Shown: piece by piece, positions 1 to 64,000 of the stretch
Position numbering within the stretch: position 1 is the first letter of the stretch
Layout: every line of letters starts with the position of its first letter
From: Turritopsis dohrnii
Lineage: Eukaryota; Cnidaria; Hydrozoa; Anthoathecata; Oceaniidae
NCBI GenBank assembly: GCA_027922465.2
Contig: BQMF02000487.1
Span: 62,001 to 126,000, forward strand
DNA: 64,000 nt
Reading direction: 5' to 3'
Position numbers and translations under genes: made by a program
The notes under the pieces: generated by a model
Database searches by the model: none
What the model was told of the DNA's origin: nothing
Seen by the model: the letters and a program-made list of their open reading frames with translations, nothing else

Positions 1-2648
1 TGCGTTTGTTAAGTTTAGTTATGGTAAGTTTGCATTTACAGTGTGAATTATATATCACACCGTCGGATGAGACATTTTGATACACATTGACAGTGCAAAA
101 TGATTGTTTGTTGACGTGGTTTGTATTTTGCAGATATATTTTTTTCATGTCCAAAGTTTGGAAGGATGTCCGAAGTTAGGACGATTGACGGTAATTTTAT
201 AAACTATTTTGCTTTTTAGGACCACATCTATTGGTGCTTTCCTTGATGACAAAAATTTTGCTAACTTTCTTGATAGTTAAGATCATGACGCATGGTGCAT
301 TTATTCGTTTCAGTGACTTATTTATCGTTTTTTGTTTAACGACATTTTATATACACACTACATTTAACAATGAATGTTTTCGTTCTTTCAAATTTTTATT
401 TTCATAATTCTTTCTCCAAAGCTGTCTTGGGATAGCTTGAATATTCAAAGTTCTAATCCTTTATTGCTTTAGGGCATGTGCTGATATCTTGGAAATATGA
501 TTGAAGTTGGTATATGTGTCACTTGCAATGTAAAATCTGCATGCAACAAGTTTTGTTACAAATTAGTACTTGTTACTTGTTAAACTTGTTGATTTTGTAA
601 TAACTGCTTGTAAAGTACAACTACATGCGCTAGCACAGTTTTAAAGCTATTTCCATGGATGCTTCAAGATTAGTCTTTGGTGCCTAATAGACGTCCCTCT
701 ATAAAAATGGCTTCAGACATGATGACTAAGCCATAACGCGAAACAGAATTCGATAAAAAATGTCCACTACCCATTCCCAATTACTAAACGCTTTCCCGCT
801 GAAGTTCGCTGTAACGAGTCTTTAAAATAGGAGCACACAGCATGCCAACCGATTTCATTTCTGTTTTGTGGAAGTTACAGAAGAATTCAGTTTTAGAACT
901 CCATTCTTGCCATCTAAATGTCATTGTGAGAACATTTCTAACGGAAAACAGTGTTTTTGAGAAATATGCGTGACAAAGAAGAAAAATAAAATGAAGAGAT
1001 GATAACGAATAAACCTATGCTGTGAATTAACTTTCCATGTCAAAAGTGAATGCATGTAATACAGTGTGTTTCAAAAAATTGGCAACGAAAATTTACATTG
1101 CATTTTTGAAGTAAATATCAAATTAATTTTTATAAATTTTATGTCGATGGAATCCTTACTTTTTGGTCTTTCTCGTGATGTTATTATTGTAGCAAATGAA
1201 AAAGTAGAAGAGAAAATAAGTTTGGAAAACTCATTGATTTCTTAATGAAATTGACTTTTTCTGAATGATTTTGTCATACTTCCGCCAAGTATATGCATAA
1301 ATTCCATATAAACAATAAGTCATATTTGGGCAATTCACATAAGCATTCTGAAAATATCTAGAAGATTAATATCCATGATGTCCTTCAAAATTGACCCAAA
1401 TAACCAAATTTGAAAAAAGAAATTTTATCCAATAGAGAATTGTCTGTGGAACATTTAATTATATTACCAAAAAGTCTCAATTTAAGAAAAAGCACCAAAA
1501 GATCTGTTTCAAGCCATAGCCCAGTATATATACATTCGAAAAAGCAATGAAAATAGATTAAAAACAACCCATGTCACCAGATATGAGGCAAAAAAGGAAC
1601 CAAAATTACGCAATGGATGATGACGTCATCTGAAACTAAAAAAGGGATAAATGATTGACTGCGAAGAAGAAGATTCACACCGTTGCTGGTATAAATTGCC
1701 TGCCTTTGGGGAAACTTCGTGGTCAAACTTACCTACATTACTCGTAATTACTTTCAACCTACATGTAATTACTATATGTAATAAAACTGACTGCGTGGAT
1801 CATTCCTAAATGTTAAACATAACATCGTAGTTAAGCTTATACATTATTCAAGATCGCTAAGATGCCAGAAAATAACAACTCAAATCAATTTAAAAGTTTT
1901 AATCGCATCACATAGGATACGAAGTTAATTTTTTTGAGTCGATCAAATTATGAAAAATAATGTTTGGCAAAGAATTGGGTAAAAATATATGTCCGGTGAA
2001 GTAGATTACTTACAAAATATTTAGCATAATAATCCGATTTAGATACTTGATCGGTTAAAATTATTCAATTGCCTACTTTTTTTGTCATTTCATGTTACCG
2101 AAATGAAGCTGGATTTTACCTAAAAAATTCGGTACGAACTGCTCAGTTTTAAACAAACGAAAATATTCAATAAACTGAAAATATTCAAAAAATATCAATC
2201 GGCTGGCAGGATATTTTTAAATGTTTTTATACAATAACCACAAGCGAAAAATAAGGTTGATGTAATATAATCATTAATAAATTCTATTGCAACGACGCTT
2301 CAGCATCAGGATTGTGGTGCAGCCATGTTGCCTATCGGAATCATCATCTCTCGGTTCCAAGGAGATATCGTGTCGGCAACCATGTTTTTGTTTACGTTAA
2401 TAAGCGATCAACAAAAGTAGTTGACACTTGTAATAGCAATTATTGACTTTAGCTTCGTGGTTTTCAAACTGCATAACTGATGCTCCAACAACCATGACGC
2501 TGGATTTGGGTGCAAAAACATTTATACCACTCAGCTGCTCCAACTACAAAACATGAATTACTTCATCATACTGTGCATACAAAGACATCATTTTTTTGAC
2601 AATATTGTTTCTAAATTTATGGGTAACTTTAAATTCTTTTCCAATGAT
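1..2648. other. Non-coding flank downstream of receptor gene A
   Basis: I see no supported gene here. The stretch is AT-rich and matches copy B in four blocks separated by insertions in B. It contains the empty target sites for three copy-B insertions: near 600 (TATATATTTCCCC-ended element), near 1375 (CACTG-ended element) and near 2345 (element with 72-bp inverted repeats). Short open frames here carry no recognisable domain. Confidence 0.6.
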
Positions 2649-5600
2649 TCACTTTTCAAATGATTTGTTTTGACGAGCATGCTTAATGCCTTCTCTCTGT
2701 TGTTGTGACCTAGCAAACATCGACAGAGTTCCATAAGCTTTTTCGATGGGAGTGCCGAACAAGTAATAGATCTAAACAAACATTTTTCTTATCAGAAATA
2801 TTACATTTGCAAAAGAACAGTTTTTCCTCTAATTTGTACCCTCTTTACTAAGCACCTCATGCATAAAATAAAACACCTCCTCAATTGCCTTTGAAGGGTC
2901 TCCTAATAACCATGTAACAGGTAAACCCTTGCGCACAGAGCCTAACTATTTACCTGTGATGATGCGACTTGATGAGTAAAATATAGCATACAGCAAGTAT
3001 CGAGCAAAAACGCCAATGTTTATAAACATTAGAAACTCAACCATTAAAGGATCGCGCGCTTACAGTCAACAAGAATCATCATTGATGATAATTCATTGCA
3101 TAACAACTTTTGGGGCAACAAAATCCAAAATAAAAATCGAAAAATAAAATAAAATGCGTTTTTTTCTTACCTTTGGGACGAAAATCAAGAACAATGTACC
3201 GGTGACCGAAATGAATATGGTTAAAGCAACGATAATATACGCTATCGCAAATTTACTGCTTGTGTAGAGAGCTGATGCACATATAACACCGATAGCTGTT
3301 ACCACTGATACATTGTAAACTGCCATTCCTAAATCATCATCAATTTATCAACATTTCATTGCTGTATCCTTTTTTGTTGAAACTGGTTTTGGTCTCGGGA
3401 CCAATTCAAATAACTTTACCATTACCTATATATTTGGAATCGTTCAATAATGGGATACTGACATTTCTTGATTCCCAAGCCAGGAACGAACCAATCAGTA
3501 ACAAGCATCCTTTGTATGCGTACATCGCCATTGTGAACTGAAACTGATACTGGCACGAACACCGATGGAGAAAAAACGTTTCTTTGATGCCACCATTAAT
3601 CTAAATGTCCACACAAAGAATATGATATCCGCACAAAACATATGATATTCACTCAAAATATATGTTATGCAGTATTTGAGATGTAAACGTTGAAAAGCTT
3701 TTCTTTGAACATGTGGATTTTTTCTCGACATTTAAACTTCATATACGTAAGATATTGTCACCTCAGTTTTAATGTCGACCTCCCGCAATGAAAATGGCGC
3801 GACACAAATCCAGAAAATGAATATCACTCCATCAATTGACAACAGCAAAAGCAATAACAAGCAAAGATGGCGGTTTTTGAGTGTCTAAAGAATAGCAACC
3901 ATAAAGAAAAAAATCATGTGACTTGGGCAATGAAATTGGTGCTTTGGTGGATAAAATGCATGATTAAACGTACTAAAATATTTTTTAGGATTTCTTCAAC
4001 TCTCGACAGAGATTATTTTCATGAGAGGGTGAATACTTACAACTCTTTTGCAGTTCTCTGATGCTTTTATTATTTTGTATACTCTCCAAGTCTTCAAGAA
4101 AAAACAGCTGAAGATCAACGTGAAACCAACTAAGACAATCAAGGTCAAACCCTAAAAGGTAACCAACTAGAACATTAGTTTCACTTTGGTTATGTTTCAT
4201 ATTCTTATTCTGTAAACTACACTGATGGACCTCCGCCATTACCCTTTGGCAGCATCGTCAAAATAACTGAAACTTTTCTTGTGACACAGCAGTGGATTGC
4301 GGTAACAAACCATAAAACATTATGTGAATTGTCTTATAGCGTTAAAACGAAGCCAAAGTAAAACACAATAAAAACTGTTAAAGTAATGTTATTAAATAGA
4401 GAACAAAGTTTTATGGTTACTCATCAAAACCCACTAGAGCGTCACTATTGTATAATTTTCATTATCGATGTTATTTTCAGGAAGAGAAAGTATTATTATA
4501 AAACGTTGAATGCTCAACTAGTGCGTGTGTAAGTGAGTTTTTGAACAAAAGTAAGATTTAGTTCTTTGTTTACAATGTAAAATATGATATTTTTCATTCC
4601 AGTGGAAAACCAAGAGGGGAAAAGGAAGAACGAGTGGAAGAAAGTCTATTTTTACGATAGAAACGTGTGTTAGAAAATGCAGGAAATTTTATCCATTGTT
4701 TCTTTGTTTTTTGGGGTTTCTTTATAATTATCAAATGTGGCTATACATACAGATGAAAGTGCTGCAGTGAAGTTCTTTAAAAATGGCTGCAGAAAGGATG
4801 GTTTTTATTTACATTGGTGAGAACGTTTTATTTCTTTTCTTTTTTCTTAAACTTGAAACTCACGAAAATTTATAAAGTTAATTCTCTAAAGCTATCAGCA
4901 TCGCAGGCAGTATCATCAAACTTTGCTGATAATTCTCTGCGATGATTATAGTCTCGCATTGACGAATTATCTAGTATTCACCAATCGTATACAAGACGAC
5001 ATCAACCAAATAAATGAAGATTCTTCCAAATTGAAATCTCACATACACTACACATGATCTCCATCGCTTTGTTTGTTAAAAATCTGGAATCCAAACCATA
5101 TAAGATTATAACTGTGTAGCAGATGAAAGCACCAGCAAGGATTCCGTTATTGACCAAAGGTGAAGACATCTTGATAACCCTAGAACATATTGGCATTTAC
5201 ATCTGCAGGGACCGCGGAGCAAAATTTCGTTTGACTAATTAGGCCCAAGAAAATTTTGCGAATTTTATTGGACTAGAATGGCTAAAACTGTAAAAAAAAA
5301 CCTATATCGACAAAATTATTGGAGGTCCCCTAATCTTGCATATAAATGATTTTAGATGGTGGGGTTAGCAGTCAAAACAAACCAACAAGGATAATGAACA
5401 AACTTTTTTATATGCAACAAGTTTATAAACAACACTAGTAAATTTTCTCAAAAAGTTAAGCAACAGTACTACCAAAATCTTAGATAAACTAGCAACATCA
5501 AATTTTGAAATGATGCAGCACTTGCATAGGTACAGAACATTTCTTGAAATTGTTACACTTAGTGGTTACACAAGATTGTGCTCTCTATGTAATGATTTGA

Positions 5601-8600
5601 ATGTCCTAGATTTTGTGCTTAGATACTTTAATTAAACAACTTAAACGTACACAAAGGTTTTCAAGACTGAAAATACATATGTGTTTGATTAATGCTTAGC
5701 TACAAATTAAGCAGCATTACTACTATTGACTGGCCTTGGTTACTTATGTAAAAAGACGTGTATGTGAAAAAATGCACTAATTAACTAACAGAGTTGAAAA
5801 TACCCTAGCACCCAGATTTTTTGCAAACAGTTGCAATCTTCATAGTGATTTGCTTGGACTTAAAAGTTGCGTTTTCAAAATATACGGAAGCCGCTATTAT
5901 TAAGCTCTACATGCAAACTCGATTATTTTTAATTATATTTAAATCTATTTTAAGAGGGCCAGATACGTTGGCTCTTATCTTTTAAATTCCTCATGGCAAA
6001 GTTGGCGTGGCGGATTGCAAAGCGCAACAATTTGCTATCCTTACTTTTCATTTCTGTAATAAACATTCACAAACAAGAACGCAGCTGCAACAAAATAACC
6101 AAACATGGCCAAGCCCCAAGCTGCTATGACAACTGGTAAATCAAACGGTACTGTAGTAGCTAGCAACAAATATGTGGAATCTCTTGTTATTTTTCCCTCT
6201 ACAAAGATGATCAAAGACGAATATAGCTAACATTATATAAAAGGTTTTCGAATGTGAGTATTTTAAAAGCTTTACCTGGAAAAAGTGATTTTGGATCCTT
6301 GATGAAATCCAGATAATCGCGATCGGCTTTATACACACCTATATCTAAATTTTTATCTGAAAGAAGCAGATTAATCAATAAGCAGTGTAGAGTCTTTGCT
6401 TACACCACCTTCATGTACAATGCAAAAAGCTTTATCGCAAGAGTAAAGTACATTTGGACATTCTGACCATTAAAGACTTTGGATTATCACTGTAAACATT
6501 TTATAGTTGTTAATAAGTTTCATAATTAGGAACTTAGATGCATATTAGGAACACTGAAACCATAATCATTACTGGATAAATGAATATGGGTGAAAAATTA
6601 GCCATACGTTTTTCTTTTTCTTTATTCCATTTAAATTGCTGAATAAGTATCTCTCCAAGTCTTTCATATTGAGCATTTTTATCAAATATGACTCGGCCCT
6701 GGAAGTAAGAGGAAGGAAGTAGCAGTACATACATATATAGGTTCAATGCTTTAATATTTTTACTTCCTAAGCTTACTAATCTTCAATTGTATAAAATTCA
6801 GAGTCGTGAAGAAAATCAGTGTATTCCTTCTTAGTTCATCAAAACTGACAGGTGGATCTTCTGGTCAACCGCTTTCCCAGGCTTTCGTTTCTTTCCAATT
6901 TGAAACAAGAAATTTTCATGCGGTTACGACAACAGCATTTATGATTGGAAAAAATAATAAAGGTGTCAATATGAGCATTCCTTTTATTCAATAGAAAAAT
7001 ATTACCGAAAATCCTTCAAAATCCAAATTCCGAACTTCTTCAATAAACCGTTCAGTATTTTTGGCACCTTCGTCATGTAAACCTCCAGGTAAACCTGTCA
7101 AAACAGCAATCATTAGTGCGTCATTTTTATCAAATAATGAAATTTGTCTGGAAATCTTATATGAAGTTCTTTCACCTTTTTCTCCATACTTTTTCAGAAT
7201 TTTATCAAAAGCCAGTGCGTACGCATACACTGCGTCAAAACCGAACATGGAATCCACTCTATATTGACTAGCTGGTACAGGCTTTTCTGCAAGAGTAAGA
7301 TTTGGGTTTTTCGATTTTCGACGCCAAGACTTCAACCATAGTCTATCTTTAACAAGCTTGGCTTGCTCCCAAATCTTTTCTGCCGTCTAAAATGAATAAC
7401 CATCCACTTCGAAACAGTTAAGTATAACATTAAAACATAAAATAACGGAACAGCAAAATCATCTTCTTATTGGAACTTCAATCAGGAATTTGATTGAGAA
7501 AAAATTTACAGAATTTAAGGAATTTTTTGAGAAAAAACATACCATATTAGCCACAGTCAGCCTGCCATCTCTTCTGCGTGGAGAGCGTTTAAATTGAATA
7601 AAGCCATTTGCTACTTCTTTCAGTTGGTTAGCTGTACAGTTGAAATATCCATAATGATTAGCACCATTAAACCAATGATCATCAAGTGATATCGGCAAAA
7701 TCCATTGATATTCTGGATGGTACATTCTTCGGTGATAAGCCTAAATTTAACATCAAATTTCTATCTGTAACATCATTTTTGGAAATGATATAGGCAAATT
7801 ATCTAAGTATCCTTTAAAACCATATAAATCATAAGAATTCCATGTTTTTGAAAGAATATCCTTTTGCCATGCACGTACAGGTACATGGCTTACTGAGGTT
7901 ATCTATATGAACATACAACAGGTTGTTTGTGTGAACCTTGTTCTAGGTGAAATAAGGGACAATCAAATTTACCGGTTTTACATTGTCTTAGTTTAGAGCG
8001 ATTTAAGAGCCTTTAAAACTTTAATCGATAGATCGCATTTTTTTGATGCTATAACCTTTTTATTCCCCAAAATTGCGTGGGCACTTATGTGATGATGGGC
8101 ACTTATTCAATGACGGGTACTTACGAAGTCATGGGTTAAGATTTCCAAATCAAAGGGTGGCTGTGATTGATTATTAATAAAGGGATGATTACTAAATGTG
8201 TTCAGAAAATAGGTGGGTACTTTAACTACAGGACCAATCCATGTTGTATGTTGAACGCTCAAAACGTCGTCAACAAATAGATGTGTCACAAGAAACTGTC
8301 GTTTATAAATTGTTTTCCCACAGAGGTGGGTGCTTATTTGAGAATCTCAATTGCATTTATGGCTTTGAAAATATTGGCACGGTAACGACCTACTTAAAGT
8401 AGAAAGGAAAACGACCTACTTAAAGTAGGAACTTTCCATAGAAATACTTACATGGCAGAACACGTGATGTGCATTGTTATAGAATACTCCAACAATGATT
8501 TTTGCATCAGCAGCCTAAAACGAAGCAAATTTTAAGCCGGATTTCCAATAGAAAAAATTGATAGGTCTATCAGCACTTATCACTCTGGGTACATTGATTA

Positions 8601-11600
8601 ATTCTCGAGATAACTATTTATAATTATTCCTTTCTTTAAAATAAGTTTGAATATGCGTACTACATTGAAAAAGTTGAATTGTTTTTAATTTTTCACGTAT
8701 CTTACCGAAACATATCAACGTCAATCAATCTGGCCAATCAGATATTACATTCCAATACGATACGCGCATCAATTTTTTCTATTGGAAATCCAGCTTTACA
8801 TGCCCGATACTTTTCATAATTTTATACAGAGAAAGCTTTTGCAAAAAATGCTTTCTAACAAAAGCACTGGGCCTAAATTTCCTGGTTTTTTTCCAATTTG
8901 TGAAAAATGAATGGCAACTTTGAAATATGCATAGCCAAATTACTAAGTGTTTACATTTTCATGAAAATTGTTTTTTTGGTCCAAAAATCACCATTTATCC
9001 ATATCGGGCTGTATTTGGTGGACGTTGGAGATGCTAAATTTATGGAACTTTTAAACTTTTAAACATTCGAATAAACGCAAAAAAAAGTAAGCTCGTTATG
9101 CTTATTGTTATTTTGCTATTTTATAGATTTATTGTCAACTTTGACAAAGTTCACATGTTGCAGATACAATGTTAACATATCAGAAGGGCCTATTCATATC
9201 ATGCAAGGATCTATTCACACGTATCTAATATGATGTCTAATCACGTGATGGAAGTAATGTAAACAAACAATTAAATGACTTCTGTTAAAGTCCACTTTGT
9301 AATAATCGTTCCATTTTGTAATACCTGTCCCGATCTGTAATAAAATTGTCCCGATTTGTAATACCTGTCTCGTTTTGTAGTAAAATCGTCCCGATTTGTA
9401 ATACCAACAAGCTGTCCCACTTTGTAATAAGGCTTGTCCCACTTTGTAATACCAAAAGTTGTTCCACTTTGTAATAACTTTGTAATACCAAAAAAATGTG
9501 ATAACCTCGTTCTCTGCTTTGTAAGGATTGATTAAAATAGTAGTACAAGTTCAACAAAGCTTCCACCCAGCAAGTAGTTGTTAGTGATCGGGACATTTTC
9601 ATTTGTGTTGAATATTACCATGACTATCACTTCTTTACTTTATCTACACAAATATTTCCATCTGATTTTGTACAGTTGTGCGTGACATGTAACATGTTAA
9701 TTACAGATGACGTTTCTGGAACAATAAAAAAAAACAAAGGACAAAAACATATGAAATTTACGTTTCATACATTACATACTTGATGTATTTTTTTGTAGGC
9801 ATGTATTTCATGACAAAGTGGGATCTAATAATAGTGTACCGAGAAACTACTTTGTGGACATAATTGCGATGTATTATAATTTGAAATAGCCGTTTTTTAA
9901 TTCTTCTTTCTCTCCTTTTACAAATACCATCATAGCCTTTATAGTCTGTTCGCATACCTTAGCAAAACGAGTTTCCCGGAAACAAATAGCGATGAAAAGT
10001 AGTTATGATAAGACACGTGGTATATGAATACGCACGATATTATGCTGTACGCTAAGGGTTAATTTTGCCTACGTTTTTATCGCGACTAAAATAATAAATT
10101 CCAAATCCCCCGATGAATATTGCAAATAATTCCAACGTCTGCTCCTACAGTAAATTGCGACGTCAGTTTGGGGTTGCTTCTTCATAAAATGCCTGTTTGA
10201 AAAAAATTCTCCGAGGGTATTACAAAGTAGAAAATGTGGTTATTACAAAGTGGGACAGCTTTTTGGTATTACAAAGTGGGACAATCCTTATTACAAACTG
10301 GGACAGCTTTTTTATTACAAATCGGGACGATTTTATTACAAAACGGGACAGGTGTTACAAAGCGGTACAATTTTATTACAAATCAGGACAGGTATTACAA
10401 AGTAGGACGATTATTGCAAAGTGGGCTTTAACACTTCTAAAGAATTTCACAAACCTTGATAGCATTCATTTGTGTGGAAAGATCAAAGAAAGAATTGAAT
10501 CCTTGTAGCGTTACAATGTTGTAACCCCTTTGTCGCAAGATCTCATTCAAATCAAGTGCAACCTTAAAAACAAGTATAGGTAAGTTTGCACTAATAATGA
10601 AAAAAGAAATTTTAACAATGAAACAATTAAAAATAATCGCCCGGTAACTAGGCAGCTGACGTAATTGTTTCCACCTTGAGTGAACCTAATATCATTACAA
10701 TTGAAATAAATTTCAGGGGGCCAAAATGACCGAAAATTGGGACTTGAGAACCTTTTTATATGAAATTTGTTTGGTGATGAAAACCTTTCAATGCTAAATA
10801 TATGCTTTATAACGAATTCGTAATCACAACAGTTCTACAGTAAAAGCAGCCAATCAGAACAATTCTACAGTGAAAGCAAGCCAATCAGAACAGTTTTGAG
10901 CATTTTTTTTCATCTATAATCTTTCGAACAATTTTGTAAGTTCTACCTGTGTCAAATGTGCAGCTTTGAATGGATATAATATAGCCATACGCTTCCATTG
11001 AAATTGATTCAATACTTTACCCAAACTTTTGTATAATGTATGCGTTGTTGGAGGAATTCTAACTAAATAAGGATGTCTTTTTATCTCCTGTTGATAATCC
11101 TTATAATTGAACTGTTTCAGTGAGGAGCCGTAAGATATCTAAATGATTCAAAGGAGGTTAGAACAGAGAGATGTGCATTTCTGGTAAACATTTCTTTTGC
11201 CTTTATTTACTATAGAGTCACATGGTAATGGACACTACTATAAGGAAATAAAACAAAACAAAAGAAGTTACCCAGTGGGCAAAATGCGTCAAAGTGTCTC
11301 TGCGATGAAGGGCATTTTCTTTAAAATAATGTGTATATTTCTATAGAACTACACTCCTTCGCAGTGACTTTTCAACAATGTTGCCTACTGAGATAAGTAT
11401 TTGTCAAAGAAGATGAATACCTGAGGAATATTTCTTTTTGTTGCAGAATAACCTAACGCTATAGTTTGATGACTGTAAGTATCCAGAAGTCCATGAAGTT
11501 GAAAATTTGATCGCGCTAGGCGAAAAAAACTGACCAACGTGAAGCCAACTTTATTCTGCAAAATAGTCACAATGATCTGTTTCAGATTTTGATCGGAAAG

Positions 11601-11902
11601 GAGAAAATGAGTTTTCATCACATGAACGAAGTAAGGATTGAAAACTCTTTGTTGCCATTTCCAAAAATGAATATACTTACAAGACCTTCCTCACAATGCA
11701 GAACTATTTCATAATTTTTCAAGATGGTATCGTCTTTATTGATCAATGTCGCAGCAAGAATCAATGGTGATTCCAGCATTAACAAATCATAGTTCAAATG
11801 ACCATACAACACACAACCCAAGTTAAGTTTTTTCTTGAGTACAATACCTTTACTTTCAGAAGACAACCATAAGATTGGAAAAAGAAGTATTCGAAATAAC
11901 AT
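2649..11902 (-). CDS. GABA-B-like metabotropic receptor, copy A (16 exons, intact)
   Basis: Class C G-protein-coupled receptor at the plasma membrane. Exons: 11681-11902, 11421-11576, 10947-11138, 10455-10562, 8452-8514, 7543-7740, 7006-7386, 6608-6698, 6276-6356, 6045-6132, 5047-5179, 4041-4151, 3762-3884, 3426-3549, 3171-3328, 2649-2771. All junctions are GT-AG and every phase is consistent, giving 783 residues without a stop. A signal peptide ([17 protein letters not shown]) leads a venus-flytrap ectodomain to about residue 500 ([29 protein letters not shown]). Seven membrane segments follow. Family marks are [10 protein letters not shown] after TM3, [20 protein letters not shown] and LNDSKYIG around TM5-TM6, and LFLIFVPK at TM7. 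The C-tail is only 40 residues, with no obvious coiled coil of the kind used for GABBR1/2 pairing. Ligand is not provable from sequence. The acceptor of exon 14 is the least certain junction. Confidence 0.9.
9278..10438. mobile_element. Non-autonomous inverted-repeat DNA transposon with 6-bp target duplication
   Basis: The element spans 9284-10432 inside the intron between exons 4 and 5 of receptor gene A. Both ends read GTTAAAG(T/C)CCACTTTG inwards. Each end continues for about 200 bp as an array of roughly 20-nt sub-repeats built on TTGTAATA plus TCCCACTTT or TCCCGATTT: 9291-9490 in one orientation and 10211-10431 in the other. ACTTCT flanks both ends (9278-9283 and 10433-10438). The matching intron of gene B (50583-50944) has a single ACTTCT and no element, which is a clean empty site. 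No transposase is visible between the arms. The superfamily is not assignable by eye. Confidence 0.9.
11273..11390. mobile_element. Short MITE, CAGTGGGC ends
   Basis: A 118-bp sequence begins CAGTGGGCAAAATGCG and ends TGTTGCCTACTG, with an internal GCAGTGACTTTT near the right end. Relatives lie at 51815-51933 (allelic position in copy B), 52653-52769 and about 14240-14352. It sits in the intron between exons 2 and 3 of receptor gene A. It has no coding capacity. Confidence 0.6.
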
Positions 11903-14350
11903 TATTTGTTATTAGGAGAGAATCTAAACGTTGCTTGTCTCGTAAAAGCGTTTGATACAATTGGTCCAATTGAAAGTACACTTTCTTTTATTGATGACAT
12001 ATTTTGAAACAACGTCGTTTAAAATGTCCATAATTACAGTAATTTGCACCAATTAAAGGAAGTAGTCATAACAATTTTGTTGTTTAAGGATAAAAATATG
12101 TCATTTTTCAATGAACTTTTTCACTATGAAGATCATCAAGAACGGATGCTATTGTGTAAAATAAACACAAAATGAGCGTAGGATGAACAGCCCAACGCAT
12201 ACCATTCACTTTGTGATTATCAAACTTTTACGCATGTCTTTTACATTCTTTGGTGTCCGAAAATGCTGGAGCATTCAGAAGTTTTAGGCTAAGATTTCTG
12301 CAAACATTAATGAAAATGAGAGGCCTTTTTTCGCTTAAATCGAAGACCCGCTAAGACACTGAATAACCAATAAAGGAGTGCATATCATACATACTAATAA
12401 AAATTTCTAGTTTTATCAACTCCTCAATTTTCTTTCATGGCATTTTGTACGGACATTTTCGTGACCACGCTAGGCTTGGACAGTGAAGAAACTAATGGCT
12501 TTCTTACTTTCGCAGAAATCTGAAAAACACTGCTGTTAATTAATGAACTATAATTTGTTTCCGAACTCACATATCACGTGTAAACCCAAAAGATGTGTAG
12601 GCCTCAAATTTTCACAGGACAGATTTTTATTTTTGTAATGATTTGCATGCTTTCTATCGGAAATCGTTAAGAATTGAGGAAAATGGCGTGTTTATCTATT
12701 TTTAGAACTATGAGATATTAATTATCATAATTAAAAAAAGTTATAGCAATCATAGATAGCTTATGTTAGGATAATAAGAAAATATAATGCGCGTTAACAC
12801 TTCAGAGCTTGCAAAAATTAAATTCAAAATTAACTTGGATAGTAAATTTGTATTTATTTCTCCTCAGTATCGAATCCAATGATAATTCATTGGTTGAGAT
12901 AAATGCCGTTTATTGTTACTATAGCAACTGTTTCAAATATGAATTTTTTTTCGTGATTAAATATTGTCGTTACTGTGATTAATGTTGTCAAATTGCCAAC
13001 ATTCCTCATGTTGAGAATACCCAACTGAAATGTTTTTGTGGTTTGAAGGATTATGTTAATATTGAAGTGATGTTTTGTGCATTTTCATCCTTTCAGCTTC
13101 TTCGCTGTTTTTTGGGGTTTTTTTTGACTGAATTCGAAACTGGTAATTCATTTGAACGGAAAAAACATTTGCTGGAAGTTTTGGACTTGTCTTATTTTCA
13201 TGCCCGAGAGAAATATCCATCATTTCACACTGATAAGGTATTACACAATGGTAAAGAAAACCAACGGTTGCTATGGAGAACGTGATCAGGCTTTTCAAAG
13301 GAGAGGAAAATCCATGACGTCATTTTTAAAAGTCACTGCAATATCTTCATTTCCATGTACCGTTCCGTATATCCTTCTTATTCCCTAAATTCAAAACTTA
13401 TTAAACGCCCCCACCTCCTCCTCTGATAAGTACCCGGCCGATTATTAGAAACTAACAAATTTTCCTCAGCCTAGATCCAATCGCTTTGAGCTCCAATGCA
13501 CAATATCGGGAAATTGGGATTTACGGCATTTTTTATTAGCACGTGAGGGAGAAGCTAGTGGCCTACTCTAAATTTCCTCAGATAATGGATTTAATTACTA
13601 TTAGAATAATAATAGAAAAATAAAAGCCGGAAATATGCGTGGCCCTCCACTGAAATTGATTGTTCAATGGATTCAAGCGTGGACAGTTCTCGGATCGTGA
13701 CGTAATCAACAAAAATTCCGTTGTTGTGCATTATCAATAATAAATGATTTTGTTAACAATTTAATAACCGCCCTACTCTTTTGAGAGCCTCCTGAATGTA
13801 ATTAGCGCCCGGGCGGTTAATAGAGGAAATACGGGGTAATTTCAATTACATTCGTGGATTGGCTCAACAACAAAATGTGGTTTAACACGTAATAACTTGA
13901 TTATTTTTAATAAAAATAACATATTCATGTAAACAGCTTCTTCTTTACAAGGACTCCTACAGGCATATGTTCCTGAAACATAGGTGCCATTTCGTAATTA
14001 TCAAATCTATTACTTCCTCTACAATAATTTGATTTTTCCTTCCATAAAAAGTAAAAAACTAAAAAGTTGAGCCTGAATTTGTATAAAAGACTATGAAAGG
14101 ACAGACTATGAAATTATTCTCGAGTGTGATGATGTAAATAGGAAAATGTTTTACGAAACTTCTTATTAAGGTACGTTTCAGAAGTGAAAATATTTTTATC
14201 ATTAGGACCTCAATTTTTACTCCGAACTTAGCCTCTTCCCAGTGTGCAAAATTGACAAAAGTCACTGCGAAGAAGAGCATTTTTATTGGAATTGTGTGGA
14301 TAATTCTATAGAAACGAACTCCTTAGTAGATGTTTTTTAACATATGGCCG
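11903..14350. other. Upstream region of receptor gene A
   Basis: This is 2.4 kb of AT-rich sequence 5' of the receptor start codon. It should hold the promoter, but I see no motif I can defend. It contains a palindrome-ended repeat (13364-13835) and a decayed CAGTG-type MITE at its right edge. The short open frames at 13043-13388 on both strands overlap each other and have no domain, so I leave them out. Confidence 0.5.
13364..13835. mobile_element. MITE-like repeat of the CCGTATTTCC family (copy A)
   Basis: The left end reads CCGTATATCCTTCTTATTCCC and the right end GGTTAATAGAGGAAATACGG, an imperfect inverted pair. Blocks rich in ATTAGCGCCCGGG and AACGCCCCC lie just inside. The same sequence is at 53567-54058 in copy B, so the insertion predates the duplication. 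A partial relative is at 22083-22330, and better preserved relatives are at 30785-31253 and 45296-45701. Confidence 0.6.
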
Positions 14351-56408: not shown

Positions 56409-56756
56409 GATGACGATGATGTCAGAATCACCAACACCATTTCACGTAATCCCGAAAGCAACTGTAATGCCGAAATACAAGTAGATCCAGCATTCCGATC
56501 TCGAATCAGTTTCGACGTCGATTTAAAAAAGGAAGTCGTTCACGAAAAGTTAAAAGTTTCCTCGAAAGTGAAATTTACAAAAGACGAAGACGAGTTTTTG
56601 AGTAGAGGTATCTCCAAATATGGAAAAGGTCGCTGGAGCCTTATACTGAAGGATACTGAATACTCGTTTAACCCTTGTCGAAATAAAGACTCGCTCCGCA
56701 TGCGCGCAGAATCTATGGGATTTAAACGTAACACGAGCTCTTGTGTAAATTTATAA
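56409..56756 (+). pseudogene. C-terminal end of a second recombinase, with Myb/SANT domain
   Basis: 116 codons including the stop, open from the junction with duplicated host sequence. An acidic start (DDDDVRIT) leads to DVDLKKEVVHEK, then a Myb/SANT-like helix set: KFTKDEDEFLSRGI, KYGKGRWSLIL, RNKDSLRMRAESMGF. It is closest in shape to the telomere-repeat-binding type. The first 49 residues align with residues 508-556 of the gene at 62332-64000 (DVQLKREVVNEQ), at roughly one third identity, so it is the end of a diverged relative. It has no start codon and nothing upstream, so it is a fragment unless it serves as a 3' exon. Confidence 0.75.
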
Positions 56757-56806
56757 ATACTGATGATCTGTTATTTCTTCTGAAGGAAATACAAGATTCC
56801 CTAACA

Positions 56807-57346
56807 TTAGTTTTCAATCTCTTCCTCATCTCCGCCAAAACACTCTTGTGTTGAGATTTCACAACAACCACTATTTTGATCAATTTCCTCACCATCGTCT
56901 AAATCAACGTGAACACAATTTCTTAAACATTTTTTGAAGAAACTGAAAAATTTAAGGCTACCTATGTAACTCACAGGACATGATGTACTCTTCAAGCACA
57001 TGATCGTCCTCCATCGCAACGATCTGTTCAGAACTTCCTTCATTTGCTGTAATAATACCTAATAACAGACATAAAAATCAATATTAAGTACCTTCTATAA
57101 ACAGAAACAACAGAAGAAAAAAATAAGTGGCTACATCTAACCTTTCTCAATTTCTTCATCACTGTATTCGTCACTGTATGGCCACCACACTAACCTTTCC
57201 GTGAGCTCAGGTGGAGAGTCAAAAAGGCCCATCACAATATCCATAATGTCATCTTCATCACTGTACACATGTATCGGTGAGTTTAAATATTCCAATAGTT
57301 CTTCCTTATCAAAACTTTCCATGTTGTTGCCAGCGAAAGCGTACAT
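56807..57346 (-). CDS. Small acidic protein, unknown
   Basis: Exon 1 (57142-57346) starts at ATG and encodes a strongly acidic chain (MESFDKEELLEYLNSP, VYSDEDDIMDIVMGLFD, WWPYSDEYSDEEIEK). Exon 2 (56962-57046) continues in phase (MEDDHVLEEYIMSCEL). A third stretch ends at 56807 with VHVDLDDGEEIDQ and GGDEEEIEN. The last intron would be only about 40 nt, and a continuous alternative frame exists, so the exon structure is uncertain. Total is roughly 140 residues. No family is recognised. It is convergent with the Myb fragment and follows the helicase on the same strand, across the repeat array. Confidence 0.5.
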
Positions 57347-57546
57347 AAGCAGATGTTACAAAATGATGTTCCAATTTAAAGAATTAACATTAGTTCCCAG
57401 GTTATCAACGAATCGTAAGAAAATAATTGCTATTTAAAGTATCGTTGCGCGTTGCGTTATGCTTTTTGTTTATTTCAAGTTTATCATATTTTTCAGAATA
57501 TAAACCAACACCATCACCCTCACAAACCCGATGTTGTTACCGACAA

Positions 57547-58522
57547 AAAAGAATTTCTTGTAACGCGTTGTTACCCGTTGTAACGTGTTGTTACCAGTTG
57601 TTACACCTTACGGAAAACTAATGTTAGCCAGACAACGACGCGTCGTAATATCAATACGTCAAATAAAGGCGTCGACGGTATAGTGACGGCTCGTCACAAA
57701 CGACATTCATACGGCGTCGTTGATGACAAAATGATTGCTTGTTACGCGTTGTTACCCGTTGTAACGTGTTGTTACCGGTTGTTACACCCTACGGAAACAT
57801 AATGTTGGCGACTCAACGGCGTGTGTCAGTTGGCAGACAAAACTTATACTGTCAGACTATGTAACAACAGGTAACAACGTGTAACAACACGTAACAGTAA
57901 GTAACAAGCCCAATGAGTCGCCGACATAGACAACGACCCGTCGTAATATCAATACGTCAAGTAAAGGCGTCGACGGTAAAGTGACGGGTCGTCCCAAACG
58001 ACATTCAAACGACGTCGTTGATGACAAAATGATTGCTTGTTACGCGTTGTTACCCGTTGTAACGTGTTGTTACCGGTTGTTACACCCTACGGAAAAATAA
58101 TGTTAGCGACCCAACGACGTGTCTTAGTTAGCAGACCAAACTTATACTGTCAGAGTATGTAACAACAGGTAACAACGTGTAACAACACGTAACAGTAAGT
58201 AACAAGCCCAATGAGTCGCCGACATAGACAACGACCCGTCGTAATATCAATATGTCAAGTAAAGGCGTCGACGGTAAAGTGACGGGTCGTCCCAAACGAC
58301 ATTCATACGGCGTCGTTGATGACAAAATGATTGCTTGTTACGCGTTGTTACCCGTTGTAACGTGTTGTTACCGGTTGTTACACCCTACGGAAACATAATG
58401 TTGGCGACTCAACGGCGTGTCTCAGTTGGCAGACCAAACTTATACTGTCAGAGTATGTAACAACAAGTAACAACGTGTAACAACACGTAACAGTAAGTAA
58501 CAAGCCCAATGAGTCGCCGGCA
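57547..58522. repeat. 298-bp tandem repeats with facing GTTGTTAC / GTAACAAC arrays
   Basis: The phrase TGATGACAAAATGATTGCTT starts at 57721, 58019 and 58317, an exact 298-bp period; a shorter first unit begins near 57547 and the last is incomplete. Each full unit has GTTGTTAC three times plus near copies (TTGTTACGCGTTGTTACCC...). About 70 bp later come three GTAACAAC in the opposite orientation. A CG-rich stretch with GGCGTCGACGG and GACGGGTCGTC follows. Units are almost identical, so the array has been homogenised or is young. It lies between the helicase and acidic genes. Candidate origin, recombinase-binding or Myb-binding iterons; function is inferred. Confidence 0.9.
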
Positions 58523-58697
58523 TGGAAATATGTTGGAATGCCGATAGAGTACAGTAATGCCTTAATATACCAAATAGTTGTTCTTGTGTGCTTGGGATAA
58601 GAAAGTTTTAAAGTTTGAACAAGGGTGTATTTGGTGAAAATCTACTTTCAGGAATTTGGTGAGGGTATTAAAACAAATTATCTGTCATCGTCACTTA

Positions 58698-61600
58698 TTA
58701 TTCGTCATCTGAAATTACAATAGTTTCTTTTGTGGGATTACCAATCTTGTGCCTAGAGACTTGCCAAAATTTGACTTCCTCCTCGTCACTTGATAGAACG
58801 ATGTGCTCTGGCGCTGGTTCAGCAACAATAAAACGCTTCAATGGCTTTTGTTCAAAGGTTTCGTCTTCACTATCGGTAATGAGATTGACGCAATCCAACT
58901 GTTTAAGTGGTTGAAACAAAACATCTGGCTTCTTTTCGGAAGTTTCTTTCACATGGCAAGTACTGCCACTCTGCTGTGGTTGACTGTGTTCCACCGATGG
59001 AAAGCATTGTGGAAATCTTTCACAGAACAAGTCAAACTCGAATTCCTGACGACGTAATTTTTTCCGCAGCAGCCACGCGTCATAAAACGTATCCGATTTC
59101 GACCAGTTGTTACGAAATCGTATTTCATATCTGAAAGATAGTTAAACACTGTAAAAGCATGTATGTAACACTTTACTGTAAGTGATTTTGTTTTCTTTTT
59201 CTATAAAGATGGTTTTCTTACCGATTAATGTCATCTTCCTCAATTTCATCTTCCAAGATGCCGTAGTGGAAAAGTTCGTATACCTTCAACATGTACTGCA
59301 AATCATTTGGTTCCAAATTGCTATCAAATAGATGAAAATCCTTTGACCAGCGCGACTCATCTTCTCGATCTACCTGTAAGAACAAGCTGTCAATCTGCGA
59401 CTGCTCAACATCTGAAGTTCCCAACGCAGTACTTTCTGTTAACACAGGGCTTCTCTCTCGCGATATTGTTGTTGCTAAGTCATCAATTGTCAGCAGATCA
59501 GTGGCATCAAAATCAAATTCATTATAAACTGCACCTTCTTCAAACGGAGTTTGCACCGAGGAATTTGAACAGGATTCAAAAAGTGGTGTTTCCGACAATA
59601 TCTCAGCGCAATAATGGAAGACTTGCATGCAGTTTCTTCGTAACCAAGCTGAAACGAAATGTTTGAACGCCTGATCAAATAGCTTTAAAGAGATTTCGAA
59701 ACAAACTTGGTAACTTTCCAAACCTGTTATGCTGCTGTCTTTCTTTGGAAGTGTCTTGGTTTTGAAAACCACAAGTCTTCGATAAACAGCGTGCACATAT
59801 GATGACTGTTATGGAGTGTAAAGCAACTTCATCAGACTTACCCTGCAAAAGTCGCTTTGCATCTTCACAACACAGACTATCAGCTGTCCACTCATCCATG
59901 AATACAAGTTCTGTATCTTCGTTCACTAGGTGTCCAGAGAAACGTCCTTCTCTTACTACTCCGGCAATGTTGGCACTAGGAATGATTCCTGGAGAAAAAA
60001 CTCACAATAATTAATTATAAAATAAATCCATAAATAATCAGTAATAAGTAAAGCATCAATAATGTACCTTCAAATGGTGCAACCCAACTAGTTTTACCGC
60101 TTTCTGGTGGTCCTTCAAGCAATAGCTTCGGCTCTTTCATGGGAAATCTACCATGGAGAAGCAACTGGTAGTACTTTTGCAAAAATGACTTCCTCTCCAC
60201 AAAACTTGGAAAGCTGTTTGTTATTCCTGAAACAAAGTGACTTGTAGCAGTTATTGACGCAGCGACAGAAGATTTTACTAATAATAACTGAATGTATTTA
60301 CACACCTTCAACAAACGGCTTTGGATATGGCACCATGTTTCGGTCATAGTAATAGCGAACAAAGGCTCTTGGTGTACCTTTCAGTTCAGGATTGGTAACA
60401 AATCGTTTACCCGCAATGTCAAAACAAGTACCAAACGGCTGTACTTCGATGTAGTTGTGGTCGACAGGTAGTGGACGAATCAGCATGCAGGCCGGCTCCG
60501 AAAGGAGTTTTGTTACAGATGTGATGCAGGGTGTCAACACATCTGCAACATCTTGATTGCACAGACTCTTCAACAGGAACTCCTTGATCGTGCAACAGTG
60601 AACTGATGTGAACTTAGCTTCCTTAATCTTCTTGTACACGTGCCCACGACAAAGAGAAAGTCCTTTAGAGTCCATAAGACGCCTCAGCACATCCACTGCT
60701 ACACATATTTGACTTGTCGGATGCCTAGCCACTACAGCTGAAGATGTTTGACCTACAACAGACAGCAGATGCGAAGTTATTGGCTTTTAATGCACGTTAT
60801 CTTCAAAATTTGCTATGAAATTATCATACATACGTGGTGCATCGTCTATCAAATGTACAGACAAGCAAGTGAATTTTATTTCATCTAATGCCTTTAGAAT
60901 TTGTGCATGTGACTCACTATCCAGTGAAGAACACAAAACTAAGTTCACGGGTGATTTTATGATGGCATCGGAATCAACGTGTCGAGGCAACACGATGCTC
61001 TGGTCGAATGCGGCTCTCCTCAAAACATGAACATGCGAGTTTATTGCCATTTCGACAGCTTCCGTAGCGTTGTGGTCCTTTAACACTTGGTAAAGGGCAG
61101 CAGAATAGGCCTCCACAGTCGAACTTTTCCCTAATGCAAAAGAGTAAACGGTGTTTATGATGATATTCAAATACTTTTGTTCGGCTGGAACCTACCTCTA
61201 CTTTTGATTAACTTGCACGAAGATATGTTTAGTACTGCCGATAACAACCGCTTTATCAGTTTCCTCTCGAACTCGGTAATGCCAATTTCTGACGTATTGA
61301 CGGCAATCCAGAAAGACAAACCTGAAGCATAATAAAAAAAATATCAGATGTTCACTAAACTACATCGTTATGTAAAGCGTTTTGTAAATATTTAAATAGA
61401 ACTTTTAGTAAAGAACATGTACCTGGAATTGTTCCCGCGTCATCCTCATCCGACTCTTCCATGTTACTTTCACTATCTGAAAGTTGCTGTCGAGTTCGTT
61501 CCAACTTCTGTCTTTTCTTCCTTCTTTCTGCTTTCCGCCTCCACTTAGTCACAGCAGTTATGCACGAAAAAAAGGCAACAACAGAGATTTCTTGACGCAA

Positions 61601-61816
61601 CACACTTTGTATTTGCTCCCTTTTCAGCCATATATTTAACTCCGCAATTTCCATATCATTATTGTCCACCTCCCATAGCGCTCGCACAGCGGTAACGTAA
61701 TATTTTTTTGCAAATACCGGAACAATGAATGTCTTTAGTGCAGACTTTAATGTTTCGCTTCTCAAAGTTCGCTTAGGCGTGCACATGTTGATGCGAAATG
61801 AACAAGAAATTATCAA
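58698..61816 (-). CDS. Superfamily-3-type helicase of the element (8 exons; sensor region missing)
   Basis: Predicted ATP-driven replication helicase. Exons: 61423-61816, 61196-61321, 60834-61130, 60306-60752, 60068-60226, 59842-59988, about 59805-59222, 58698-59130. Introns are 65-101 nt, with consistent phases except between exons 6 and 7. Walker A GPPESGKT is at residues 460-467, Walker B LVFMDEW at 502-508, then EDAKRLLQG. Exon 7 resumes at VYRRLVVFKTKTLP, which fits the region after sensor 1; the sensor-1 part itself has no room in the remaining 36 nt and the frame changes. The N-terminal 420 residues are unassigned; exon 1 has a basic run then an acidic DSESNMEESDEDD. The C terminus has three SUMO-interaction-like motifs (VNLITDSEDE, HIVLSSDEEE, TIVISDDE). 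Either a decayed copy or a misread junction. Confidence 0.75.
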
Positions 61817-62331
61817 CTAACTTAACGTAGCTTTATACTTTTCACTCGTTAAGTTATTTACGGTGAATTTCATGCTCGGTTCCCCTTGAGAATAGATTTT
61901 CAGTGAACACAGAATGAACACAGCTTTAAACGCTTAATTGTTCTTTAATGATCTAATGTGTTCTTTATAAATAATGGTTGTACATTTCGTGCACTCTTGT
62001 TCCTTTGGGATTGACAGATTTGTTCCGTTCAGCGGAGAGTAAAACGGAGTGCCTGAAAACGACCTATTTGTTCCTGATAACGCGCTTAATTGTTAACAAA
62101 ATGTTCCGCTTTGCCGTTCTCATATTGTTCTCACTTATATGGACCAAACTATTCTGTTTTAAAGAGAACAAATGATTCTATTCTTCAAAAAGAATTGATC
62201 ATTCTTTGGTGGAAAGAACAAACAAATTACTCTCTTGTGATTCGTTAAACATTGTATAAAATGTTGACTGATGTTTAAAGAACAGAAATGACAAGGAGAA
62301 GAGAGGAATTAATCGATTACAAAATAAAAAG
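61817..62331. promoter_or_regulatory. Divergent promoter with TGTTC/GAACA array
   Basis: The 515 bp separating helicase and recombinase start codons. It holds 13 TGTTC/GAACA sites between about 61904 and 62346: two GAACA, then seven TGTTC spaced 21-39 bp (about 61938, 61959, 61998, 62030, 62069, 62102, 62126), then four GAACA. Roughly one would be expected by chance. A TATAAAA lies at about 62254, some 75 bp before the recombinase ATG, and TTTATAAAT at about 61965 on the helicase side. It may be bound by an element protein or a host factor; it could equally be the origin. Confidence 0.6.
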
Positions 62332-64000
62332 ATGTCAAAAAGAACACTTTTCGTCAACTGGGTCGGAATCAATGGAGCAGCCAGACACAAAAGGAAGTTG
62401 ATATTGCGACCTAGTGATACGAACATCTACATTTGTCCAGTAAAGAACTGTTTGCACGTTGGCTTCAAAAGCAGTCGAGGATTACGGAAGCATATCGATA
62501 AGAAGCACGGTTGGTATTATTATTTTGACGAAGCACCAGACGTGAAGAGGGAAGAAGTAGTCGCCTATCAACCGACGAAAAAGAAAATTTGCACAGCCAA
62601 CAAGCCTGCATTTTCCGTAAACGAAGGCATTGGAAAGGACTTCTTGGAGTGGCTTTGTACGCCCTGTGGTGGAGGAAAATCCGAGAAAGAAGCGAAACAA
62701 TGTGCACAAAGATGTATGAAGTTTCTTATGGCCAGCATTGACGATGTCGAATCCGAATCTGTTTTAACGGAAGAATTTGTCGACTGTTGCTTGGGTACGC
62801 CCTCCATCATCATGGATTTCCTGAAAATGCTGGAAGAAGATTGGAAAATTACCAGTTCGGCGTCCTTAAATTACTTAAAGTCGATATCAGACATATTGGA
62901 TTTTCGAAAGGCCCACGGTGTGTCCGACAGTACTTTGCGTTGTTTTGCCGTGACCGAAGTATACATAAGACGTGGTAAAGAAAATCTGGGCAAGAAAAAG
63001 AGACTGGAATATTCTCGCAACCTCGATTTGGAAACGTTGATTGCAAGAAATAGTTGGGCGACTATGGAAGAAATGGAAAACGTTATCCCTTATCACATTT
63101 GTCGTTTTCGGGACGTTTTGCAGGAGTGTAAAGACGCCCAAAGAAGTCCGTCCGTATCGCAACTGGCATTTGCAACGAGATTTGTCGCTACCTATCTATT
63201 CGTGCGTGTCAAATGCTCCAGACCGATGACTTATCAGTACTTGACCATCGAAATGATAGAAAAGGCAAAGACAAACGGAGGTTTCGTCGATCAGAAAGAA
63301 TTCAAAACTGCCGATAGGTATTTGTTTGATACTGTTATTTTAGACTCTGAGACTTTAGAAATTCTTGATTTTTATATTGACTTAGTACGACCGAAACTGA
63401 ACCCGAGTTGCGATTACTTGTTGGTCACAAACAAAGGTAAACAATACACTGCATTCTCGACTGCGATGAGCATTCTCGTTCACGAAGCCATCGGAAAGTA
63501 CATCAATCCAACTCGTTATCGTCAGATCGTCGAAACAGAGAGTGCGGAAAGATTGACTCCGTCCGAACGAGAAGTTGTTTCACGAGACCAAAAGCACAGT
63601 TCGCACGTGGCGAAGGTGTCGTATCAAAAGAATCTGTCCAGAGACGTTGCTTCGCGTAGCAGACAATGCATGGAAAAGCTGGTCGGTAATAAACGAAAAG
63701 AAGTGAGTGCAGACATGATGGACGTTTTACGGACGATAAACGACACAGCTCGTACATTCGATCAACGTGTACTCAATCAAGCCGAAACGATTTTATCACA
63801 ACAACCGTGCACTAGCTCGTCATCGCAAGTGATCGTCGATGGTAACGACAACGATGACGACATAACAATAACGGGCACTATCCCGTCTACTGCCGGAAAA
63901 GACGTTACAAAGAATTTACAACAACGAAATCAATCGTTGGTGTCTTTGATCAGTTCGGACGTGCAGTTAAAACGAGAAGTCGTCAACGAACAAACCAAAC
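62332..64000 (+). CDS. C2H2 zinc-finger tyrosine recombinase (partial, runs off window)
   Basis: 556 codons are open from ATG 62332 to the last base, without a stop or intron. Residues 35-59 form a C2H2 finger (C35, C40, H54, H59; YICPVKNC, LRKHIDKKH). A helical middle follows. The recombinase core has first Arg R297 in CSRPMTYQYL, second Arg R397 in INPTRYRQI, with Thr where most families have His, and H422 in KHSSHVAKVSY with the presumed nucleophile Y431 nine residues on, the usual H-to-Y spacing. After it comes a basic region and an acidic patch (VIVDGNDNDDD, residues 500-510). The last residues align with the fragment at 56409-56756, which predicts a Myb/SANT domain just past the window edge. 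Likely integrase/transposase of the element; Crypton-like, but class not settled. Confidence 0.85.
   Translation, partial: MSKRTLFVNWVGINGAARHKRKLILRPSDTNIYICPVKNCLHVGFKSSRGLRKHIDKKHGWYYYFDEAPDVKREEVVAYQPTKKKICTANKPAFSVNEGIGKDFLEWLCTPCGGGKSEKEAKQCAQRCMKFLMASIDDVESESVLTEEFVDCCLGTPSIIMDFLKMLEEDWKITSSASLNYLKSISDILDFRKAHGVSDSTLRCFAVTEVYIRRGKENLGKKKRLEYSRNLDLETLIARNSWATMEEMENVIPYHICRFRDVLQECKDAQRSPSVSQLAFATRFVATYLFVRVKCSRPMTYQYLTIEMIEKAKTNGGFVDQKEFKTADRYLFDTVILDSETLEILDFYIDLVRPKLNPSCDYLLVTNKGKQYTAFSTAMSILVHEAIGKYINPTRYRQIVETESAERLTPSEREVVSRDQKHSSHVAKVSYQKNLSRDVASRSRQCMEKLVGNKRKEVSADMMDVLRTINDTARTFDQRVLNQAETILSQQPCTSSSSQVIVDGNDNDDDITITGTIPSTAGKDVTKNLQQRNQSLVSLISSDVQLKREVVNEQTK

What the first reader, a model, noticed from the sequence alone, without database searches (positions are those of the whole stretch)
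56409..64000. An animal mobile element that pairs a replicative helicase with a zinc-finger/tyrosine recombinase/Myb protein
Seen: a Walker A/B helicase gene and a tyrosine-recombinase gene are transcribed divergently from one short promoter, next to iteron-like repeats, in a compact block inserted in duplicated host DNA. Known: Crypton-type elements usually carry only the recombinase, while SF3 helicases with tyrosine recombinases occur together in some virus-like elements. Inference: this may be a replicating or virus-derived element family with its own origin. The C2H2-recombinase-Myb domain order is itself uncommon.
Basis: partly seen in the sequence, partly recalled or inferred. Interest (0 to 1): 0.9.

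Follow-up and report, generated by a model that had tools for sequence, protein, structure and literature searches.

The report
Animal transposon pairing recombinase with helicase
In this animal genome some copies of a mobile DNA family carry both a tyrosine recombinase (to insert) and a virus-type replication helicase beside an origin-like repeat array, so they look like DNA that may copy itself outside the chromosome and then insert; the copying step is inferred, not shown.

Summary
The genes are real, but the unit was misread. The window shows the end of one element and the start of the next in a head-to-tail array; they meet at 61820/61821. The helicase (61786-58698, minus) belongs to the left element, whose recombinase survives only as a Myb tail (56409-56756). 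The recombinase at 62332+ starts the next unit. This helicase copy is damaged: the SF3 B'-C segment kept by a 97% paralogue is missing. The pairing itself is genuine: 24 of 95 helicase loci have a recombinase in one convergent geometry (shift control: mean 0.2, maximum 2, in 500 trials), and pairs within 12 kb are opposite:same strand 42:1. But most recombinases lack it: 4 of 78 in the window's family and 21 of 76 in a second family have the helicase in place. A helicase element (~8 kb) holds a C2H2-YR-Myb recombinase, small ORF(s), 10-bp-phased repeats and an SF3-like helicase. All 30 close recombinase pairs scored are head to tail. No capsid or polymerase ORF was noticed in three elements read. 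Best reading: Crypton-like transposons, some of which are replicons. Circle and origin are inferred. The papers searched showed no description of it.

The parts
56409..56756 (+). 3' end (Myb/SANT tail, 115 codons and stop) of the recombinase gene of the left, truncated element
   Evidence: tblastn 48% to residues 494-601 of full-length relative P0001; frame read
57140..57322 (-). Small acidic ORF of the left element (MESFDKEELLEYLNSP...), perhaps exon 1 of a short gene; convergent with the recombinase
   Evidence: frames; a similar-looking small minus-strand ORF just 3' of the recombinase in C487 units (C487:126343-126813 and 151265-151513; likeness judged by eye); no Pfam match
57547..58525 (.). 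Iteron-like origin candidate: three 298-bp tandem repeats plus a partial copy; seven arrays, each of five GTNAC boxes at 10-bp spacing, in inverted pairs
   Evidence: 0 arrays in the other 56,408 bases of the window and 0 in 300 dinucleotide shuffles
58698..61786 (-). Helicase gene, eight exons in the models, probably nine; SF3-like (Walker A 60084-60116, Walker B 59873-59911). This copy lacks the B'-C segment (between 59840 and about 59793) and so is probably inactive
   Evidence: exon models; relatives in Clytia and Hydractinia 35-42%; about 140 nt missing relative to the 97% identical paralogue on C210
61787..61820 (-). End B of the left element (reads TTAGTTGATAATTTCTTGTTCATTTC from the outside inward), directly upstream of the helicase ATG
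   Evidence: resembles end B of array units, TTAGCTGAATAAAATCAGTTCAC (likeness judged by eye)
61821..61853 (+). End A of the right-hand element, CTTAACGTAGCTTTATACTTTTCACTCGTTAAG
   Evidence: 49 genomic sites with up to 2 mismatches, 0 for reversed control; edge of homology in recombinase loci
62332..63999 (+). Recombinase gene of the right-hand unit (runs past the window, 640-aa open frame): C2H2-type finger 62434-62508; presumed YR residues R297, K325, R397, H422, Y431; Myb domain beyond the window
   Evidence: XerA/XerD/Cre fold and TRF1-like Myb in the model of homologue P0001

Best explanation
It is a family of tyrosine-recombinase DNA transposons in which a minority of copies (~8 kb) are also replicons. 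One gene encodes a tyrosine recombinase with an N-terminal C2H2-type finger and a C-terminal telobox-type Myb domain; the other main gene encodes an SF3-like helicase; between them lie one or two small ORFs and an array of 10-bp-phased repeats. Proposed cycle: the recombinase joins the two ends into a circle (or uses a circle made by replication); the helicase binds the repeat array and unwinds it so that host polymerases copy the circle; the recombinase then inserts the circle, in the window's family at a TTAAG core in a target like CCTTAAGG, or at the A-B junction of a resident copy, which yields the head-to-tail arrays. Helicase-less copies move by recombination alone or use helicases in trans. 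Shown: gene pairing and order in a subset, ends A and B of the window's family, array orientation, selection on the recombinase, YR and Myb folds. Inferred: the circle, the crossover point, helicase-repeat binding, and replication.
Confidence: 0.62

Rival explanations
1. The helicase and the recombinase are two unrelated repeat families that landed next to each other here.
For: In the window the adjacent pair does belong to two different units; most recombinase copies have no helicase (74 of 78 and 55 of 76 lack it in in-element position); 60 of 95 helicase loci have no scored recombinase nearby.
Against: 24 of 95 loci in one fixed geometry against a shift-control maximum of 2 in 500 trials, orientation 42:1; a recombinase in both loci fetched from the helicase list, there only 38-40% identical to P0007 and P0039, relatives of the window's recombinase.
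Confidence: 0.05
2. It is a degraded endogenous virus (polinton-like, virophage-like or parvovirus-like) that lost its capsid genes and spreads as a transposon.
For: SF3 helicase and tyrosine recombinase both occur among polinton-like viruses and virophages (passages); weak Parvo_NS1 and phage-primase profile hits.
Against: No capsid, ATPase or polymerase ORF noticed in three helicase elements (ORF lists, not all profile-scanned); no relative in IMG/VR in four scans; the same small gene set recurs in divergent subfamilies. Ancient viral origin of the helicase cannot be excluded.
Confidence: 0.15
3. The head-to-tail arrays come from unequal crossing over or assembly error and say nothing about the recombinase.
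For: Blocks on C487 are up to 99.97% identical, which suits recent amplification or assembly error; internal 298-bp and ~620-bp repeats are hard to assemble.
Against: Arrays on several contigs with the same A-B junction, while other copies end at A against unrelated DNA. Crossing over could still expand an array once two copies exist.
Confidence: 0.2
4. The recombinase moves the element as in Cryptons, and the helicase serves another role such as repair or copy-number control, not an own origin.
For: Most recombinase units have no helicase; animal Cryptons are described as encoding only a YR.
Against: Helicase-bearing elements carry 10-bp-phased boxes, as expected for an initiator. Helicase-less units could use helicases in trans, but those on C487 carry a different repeat type.
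Confidence: 0.25

Closest known systems
Crypton DNA transposons (CryptonA of animals; Kojima and Jurka 2011, PMC3212892: abstract, sections 3, 5 and 8 and word-search passages seen)
   Same: Tyrosine recombinase as the only recognised integration enzyme; presumed circular intermediate; present in Cnidaria (Nematostella).
   Different: That paper says animal Cryptons have no C-terminal domain and speaks of transposons encoding only a YR; the words helicase and Myb do not occur in its main text. Here there is a C2H2-type finger, a C-terminal Myb and, in a subset, a second SF3-like helicase gene, small ORFs and a phased repeat array.
Polinton-like viruses and virophages with Yrec and S3H (PMC4642659, PMC12220804: abstract starts and word-search passages seen)
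   Same: Tyrosine recombinases and SF3 helicases in one group of eukaryotic mobile elements; circular donor proposed.
   Different: Those are described as 14-40 kb elements with capsid proteins and replicases such as PolB or TVpol-S3H; here ~8 kb with no capsid or polymerase ORF noticed.
Yeast 2-micron plasmid (FLP; named in PMC3212892, details recalled)
   Same: Circular eukaryotic replicon with its own tyrosine recombinase.
   Different: No helicase gene; host-type origin; not integrated in arrays (recalled).
Phage satellites such as SaPIs (recalled, not tested)
   Same: Works alike in outline: integrase, AAA+ Rep helicase and iteron origin.
   Different: Bacterial, packaged by helper phages; no homology tested.

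Membership tests
Tyrosine recombinases | Catalytic R...K...(HxxR)...H/W...Y and XerD-like catalytic fold | tested here: met
Crypton | YR transposon with short terminal direct repeats, no inverted or long direct terminal repeats | tested here: inconclusive
   Ends A and B differ and seem to share only a TTAAG/TTAG core; no complete host-element-host pair with empty site was obtained
Crypton (animal) | YR is the only gene and has no C-terminal domain | tested here: not met
   C-terminal Myb; a linked helicase gene in a subset of copies; definition from PMC3212892
SF3 helicase | Motifs A, B, B' and C in order | tested here: met
   All four in P0121-P0123; B'..C pattern in 21 of 30 helicase loci, A in 23, B in 16 (strict patterns, 3.4-kb loci). 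In the window copy B' and C are missing. Motif definitions recalled
SF3 helicase | Curated profile above cut-off or fold match | tested here: inconclusive
   DUF5906 18-23 bits against cut-off 27.6 in 4 of 12 proteins; phrog_1829 DNA primase E 7e-5 in 1 of 3 helicases; structure model too poor to use
Polinton-like virus or virophage | Major capsid protein and packaging ATPase | tested here: inconclusive
   No such ORF noticed in the elements read: L033 (frames of 70+ codons), L065 and L066 (ORFs of 90+ codons); most of these ORFs were not profile-scanned and other copies were not checked
Iteron-type replicon | Phased repeats bound by the element's own initiator and required for replication | not testable with these tools
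   Phased boxes present; binding and replication need experiments

The most novel reading that the evidence does not exclude
An animal genome hosts an integrative plasmid: a capsid-free, helicase-initiated, iteron-bearing circular replicon that shuttles between an extrachromosomal state and chromosomal head-to-tail arrays through a site-specific tyrosine recombinase, with the more numerous helicase-less units living off it as satellites.
Probability: 0.37. Interest if true: 0.9.

Novelty: new variant of a known kind. Interest (0 to 1): 0.72.

Why it matters
Eukaryotic DNA transposons normally depend on the host for copying; known exceptions that bring replication enzymes are the rolling-circle Helitrons and the large polintons and related viruses (general knowledge). 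A small capsid-free element with its own replicative helicase, origin-like array and recombinase would be a new way for transposons to multiply in animals, would link Cryptons to viral replicons, and makes testable whether animals carry true integrative plasmids.

Tried and rejected
Rejected: one linear element with a divergent promoter (ends A and B meet at 61820/61821); 56409 as an element end (truncated gene, no core); my first exon models A and B of the helicase across 59840-59723, because homologues showed a missing B'-C segment; my first idea, still in notebook entry 2, that end A lay downstream of the recombinase in 19 loci (loci are given in contig orientation, so A is upstream in all 30).

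Led nowhere: IMG/VR scans with recombinase, helicase exon, helicase alignment and recombinase alignment (no relatives); PDB by sequence (nothing credible); helicase structure (pLDDT 36; not searched further); Pfam on small ORFs; paper searches for the architecture, of which one search found 0 papers; passages of PMC5013282 on parvovirus-like sequences in animals (one cnidarian species reported; Hydra and Clytia not mentioned). Phage_P2_GpE and DUF7369 hits lie below their cut-offs and are not credible.

Not done: genome-wide search for end B, search with the Myb tail, scoring of all recombinases, an empty-site test, any check of pairing in another species. Rows dropped before counts: the 12 weakest of 107 helicase matches and the second of two rows for one C683 gene.
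Full report

The helicase. The minus-strand gene at 61786-58698 has eight exons in the models, probably nine, with introns of 61-118 nt. Four homologues at 35-42% identity were found directly, and a profile search listed 15 proteins, P0122 itself among them. P0121-P0123 carry Walker A, Walker B (FMDEW), B' (LQGGL..QKH) and C (GFFITTN), an SF3 signature; profile scores for DUF5906 are suggestive but below cut-off, in 4 of 12 proteins. The window copy lacks the B'-C stretch that the 97% identical paralogue on C210 keeps, so this copy is probably dead. Strict motif patterns found B'..C in 21 of 30 helicase loci, Walker A in 23 and Walker B in 16.

Where the unit ends. Thirty recombinase loci (of 78 matches) were compared. 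Homology between loci in different surroundings stops about 510 nt upstream of the start codon at end A; its outermost 14 nt are exact in 29 of 30 loci and one base shorter in L010. A pattern search with up to 2 mismatches found 49 such ends and none for the reversed control. In 16 of 30 loci the neighbour of A is, by eye, end B of another element (L023, L029 and L001 are variants of B); in 14 it is other DNA, which begins GTA in 10 of 14. Two B-host junctions read CCTTAAG|TTAG. This suggests a target like CCTTAAGG with TTAAG as shared core (inference; no empty site was shown). In the window A starts at 61821 and a B-like sequence lies directly upstream of the helicase ATG (61787-61820). So the helicase is the last gene of the left element and the recombinase at 62332 the first gene of the next one. 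The left element's own recombinase survives as the Myb tail at 56409-56756, cut off at a host duplication boundary. In the families of C1 and C9 the end beyond the helicase is ATA/TTA-rich instead.

Pairing test. Helicase exon 4 matched 107 places, all 112 candidates being scored; the 12 weakest rows were left out, leaving 95. Two recombinase searches with divergent queries listed 78 and 77 matches (78 and 76 used, no overlap), out of 904 and 886 candidates. Of 95 helicase loci, 24 have a recombinase in convergent in-element position, 10 have one in the divergent position expected of a tandem neighbour (two loci have both), 3 have one that fits neither, and 60 have none within 12 kb; orientation of all such pairs is 42 opposite to 1 same. 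Uniform scatter predicts 0.1 in-element pairs; shifting each helicase by 20-150 kb in 500 trials gave a mean of 0.2 and a maximum of 2. Seen from the other side the pairing is a minority: 4 of 78 recombinases of the window's family and 21 of 76 of the C9 family have an in-element helicase; 11 and 28 have any within 12 kb. All 30 adjacent scored recombinase pairs under 10 kb are on the same strand.

Anatomy. In C487:148.4-156.7k (end B at about 156650), C1 and C9 the order is recombinase, small ORF, repeats, helicase. The small ORF differs: an acidic minus-strand ORF in the C487 elements, a ~96-aa ORF on the recombinase's strand in C1 and C9. The repeat regions share a 10-bp-phased box: the window element has 7 arrays of five GTNAC boxes and C9 has 14; C487 and C1 show weaker versions (2 and 1 arrays of three or more; C1 has 5 arrays of TTACN), and none appear in 300 shuffles of each. 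Stretches L031 and L032, which hold helicase-less C487 units, have none of these boxes; L031 has AGGCCCGTCGTC-type repeats instead. No capsid, ATPase or polymerase ORF was noticed in the elements read, from ORF lists that were not fully profile-scanned.

Activity. C487 array blocks are 99.3-99.97% identical. Two divergent recombinase pairs have dN/dS 0.037 and 0.075, a nearly identical pair 0.135; for helicase exon 4, of ten pairs one gives 0.04, one close pair 0.61, and eight are saturated at synonymous sites. This fits long-term selection on the recombinase and recent amplification; for the helicase the evidence is thinner.

Mechanism and status. The anatomy fits an element that circularises and integrates by its recombinase and, where it has the helicase, copies the circle from an own origin. 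Gene pairing in a subset, ends, arrays and selection on the recombinase are shown; circle, crossover point and origin are inferred. It works like a Crypton joined to a viral-type replicon. It does not meet the published description of animal Cryptons (no C-terminal domain, YR only; PMC3212892), and no capsid genes as in polinton-like viruses, where tyrosine recombinases and SF3 helicases also occur, were noticed. Searches of open-access papers listed none that I recognised as describing it; only listings and the passages named above were seen. Repbase and subscription journals were not searched, so a database-only description is possible.

Noticed in passing
1-14323 and 29530-56408: Two largely collinear copies of a host segment at about 71-97% identity, interrupted by insertions; copy 2 ends exactly at the 56408 junction.
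   Followed up: partly
9176-10433: A repeat with inverted ends (9283-9478 and 10239-10433, 90%) built of ~20-25-bp TTATTACAAAGTGGGACA units; looks like another mobile element.
   Followed up: no
L031 and L032 (C487:126205-145500): Helicase-less units with ~620-bp repeats of AGGCCCGTCGTC type and an unassigned 118-aa minus-strand frame; possible satellites of the helicase elements.
   Followed up: partly
L065:5906-6193 and L066:2169-2462: A ~96-aa ORF (MFFKF...) just downstream of the recombinase on the same strand in another subfamily; no Pfam match above cut-off.
   Followed up: partly
L036, L040, L057-L062; L066:7918-7991: Helicase elements whose outer end beyond the helicase is ATA/TTA microsatellite-like rather than end B; perhaps a different target preference.
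   Followed up: no
L066:8134-8781: A 215-aa minus-strand ORF outside the helicase, by eye like the GIY-YIG end of a retroelement protein; probably a neighbouring element, not tested.
   Followed up: no
G000 end-A sites such as C74:125235, C86:640897, C213:468357, C670:3092: End-A copies with no scored recombinase beside them; possible non-autonomous derivatives.
   Followed up: no
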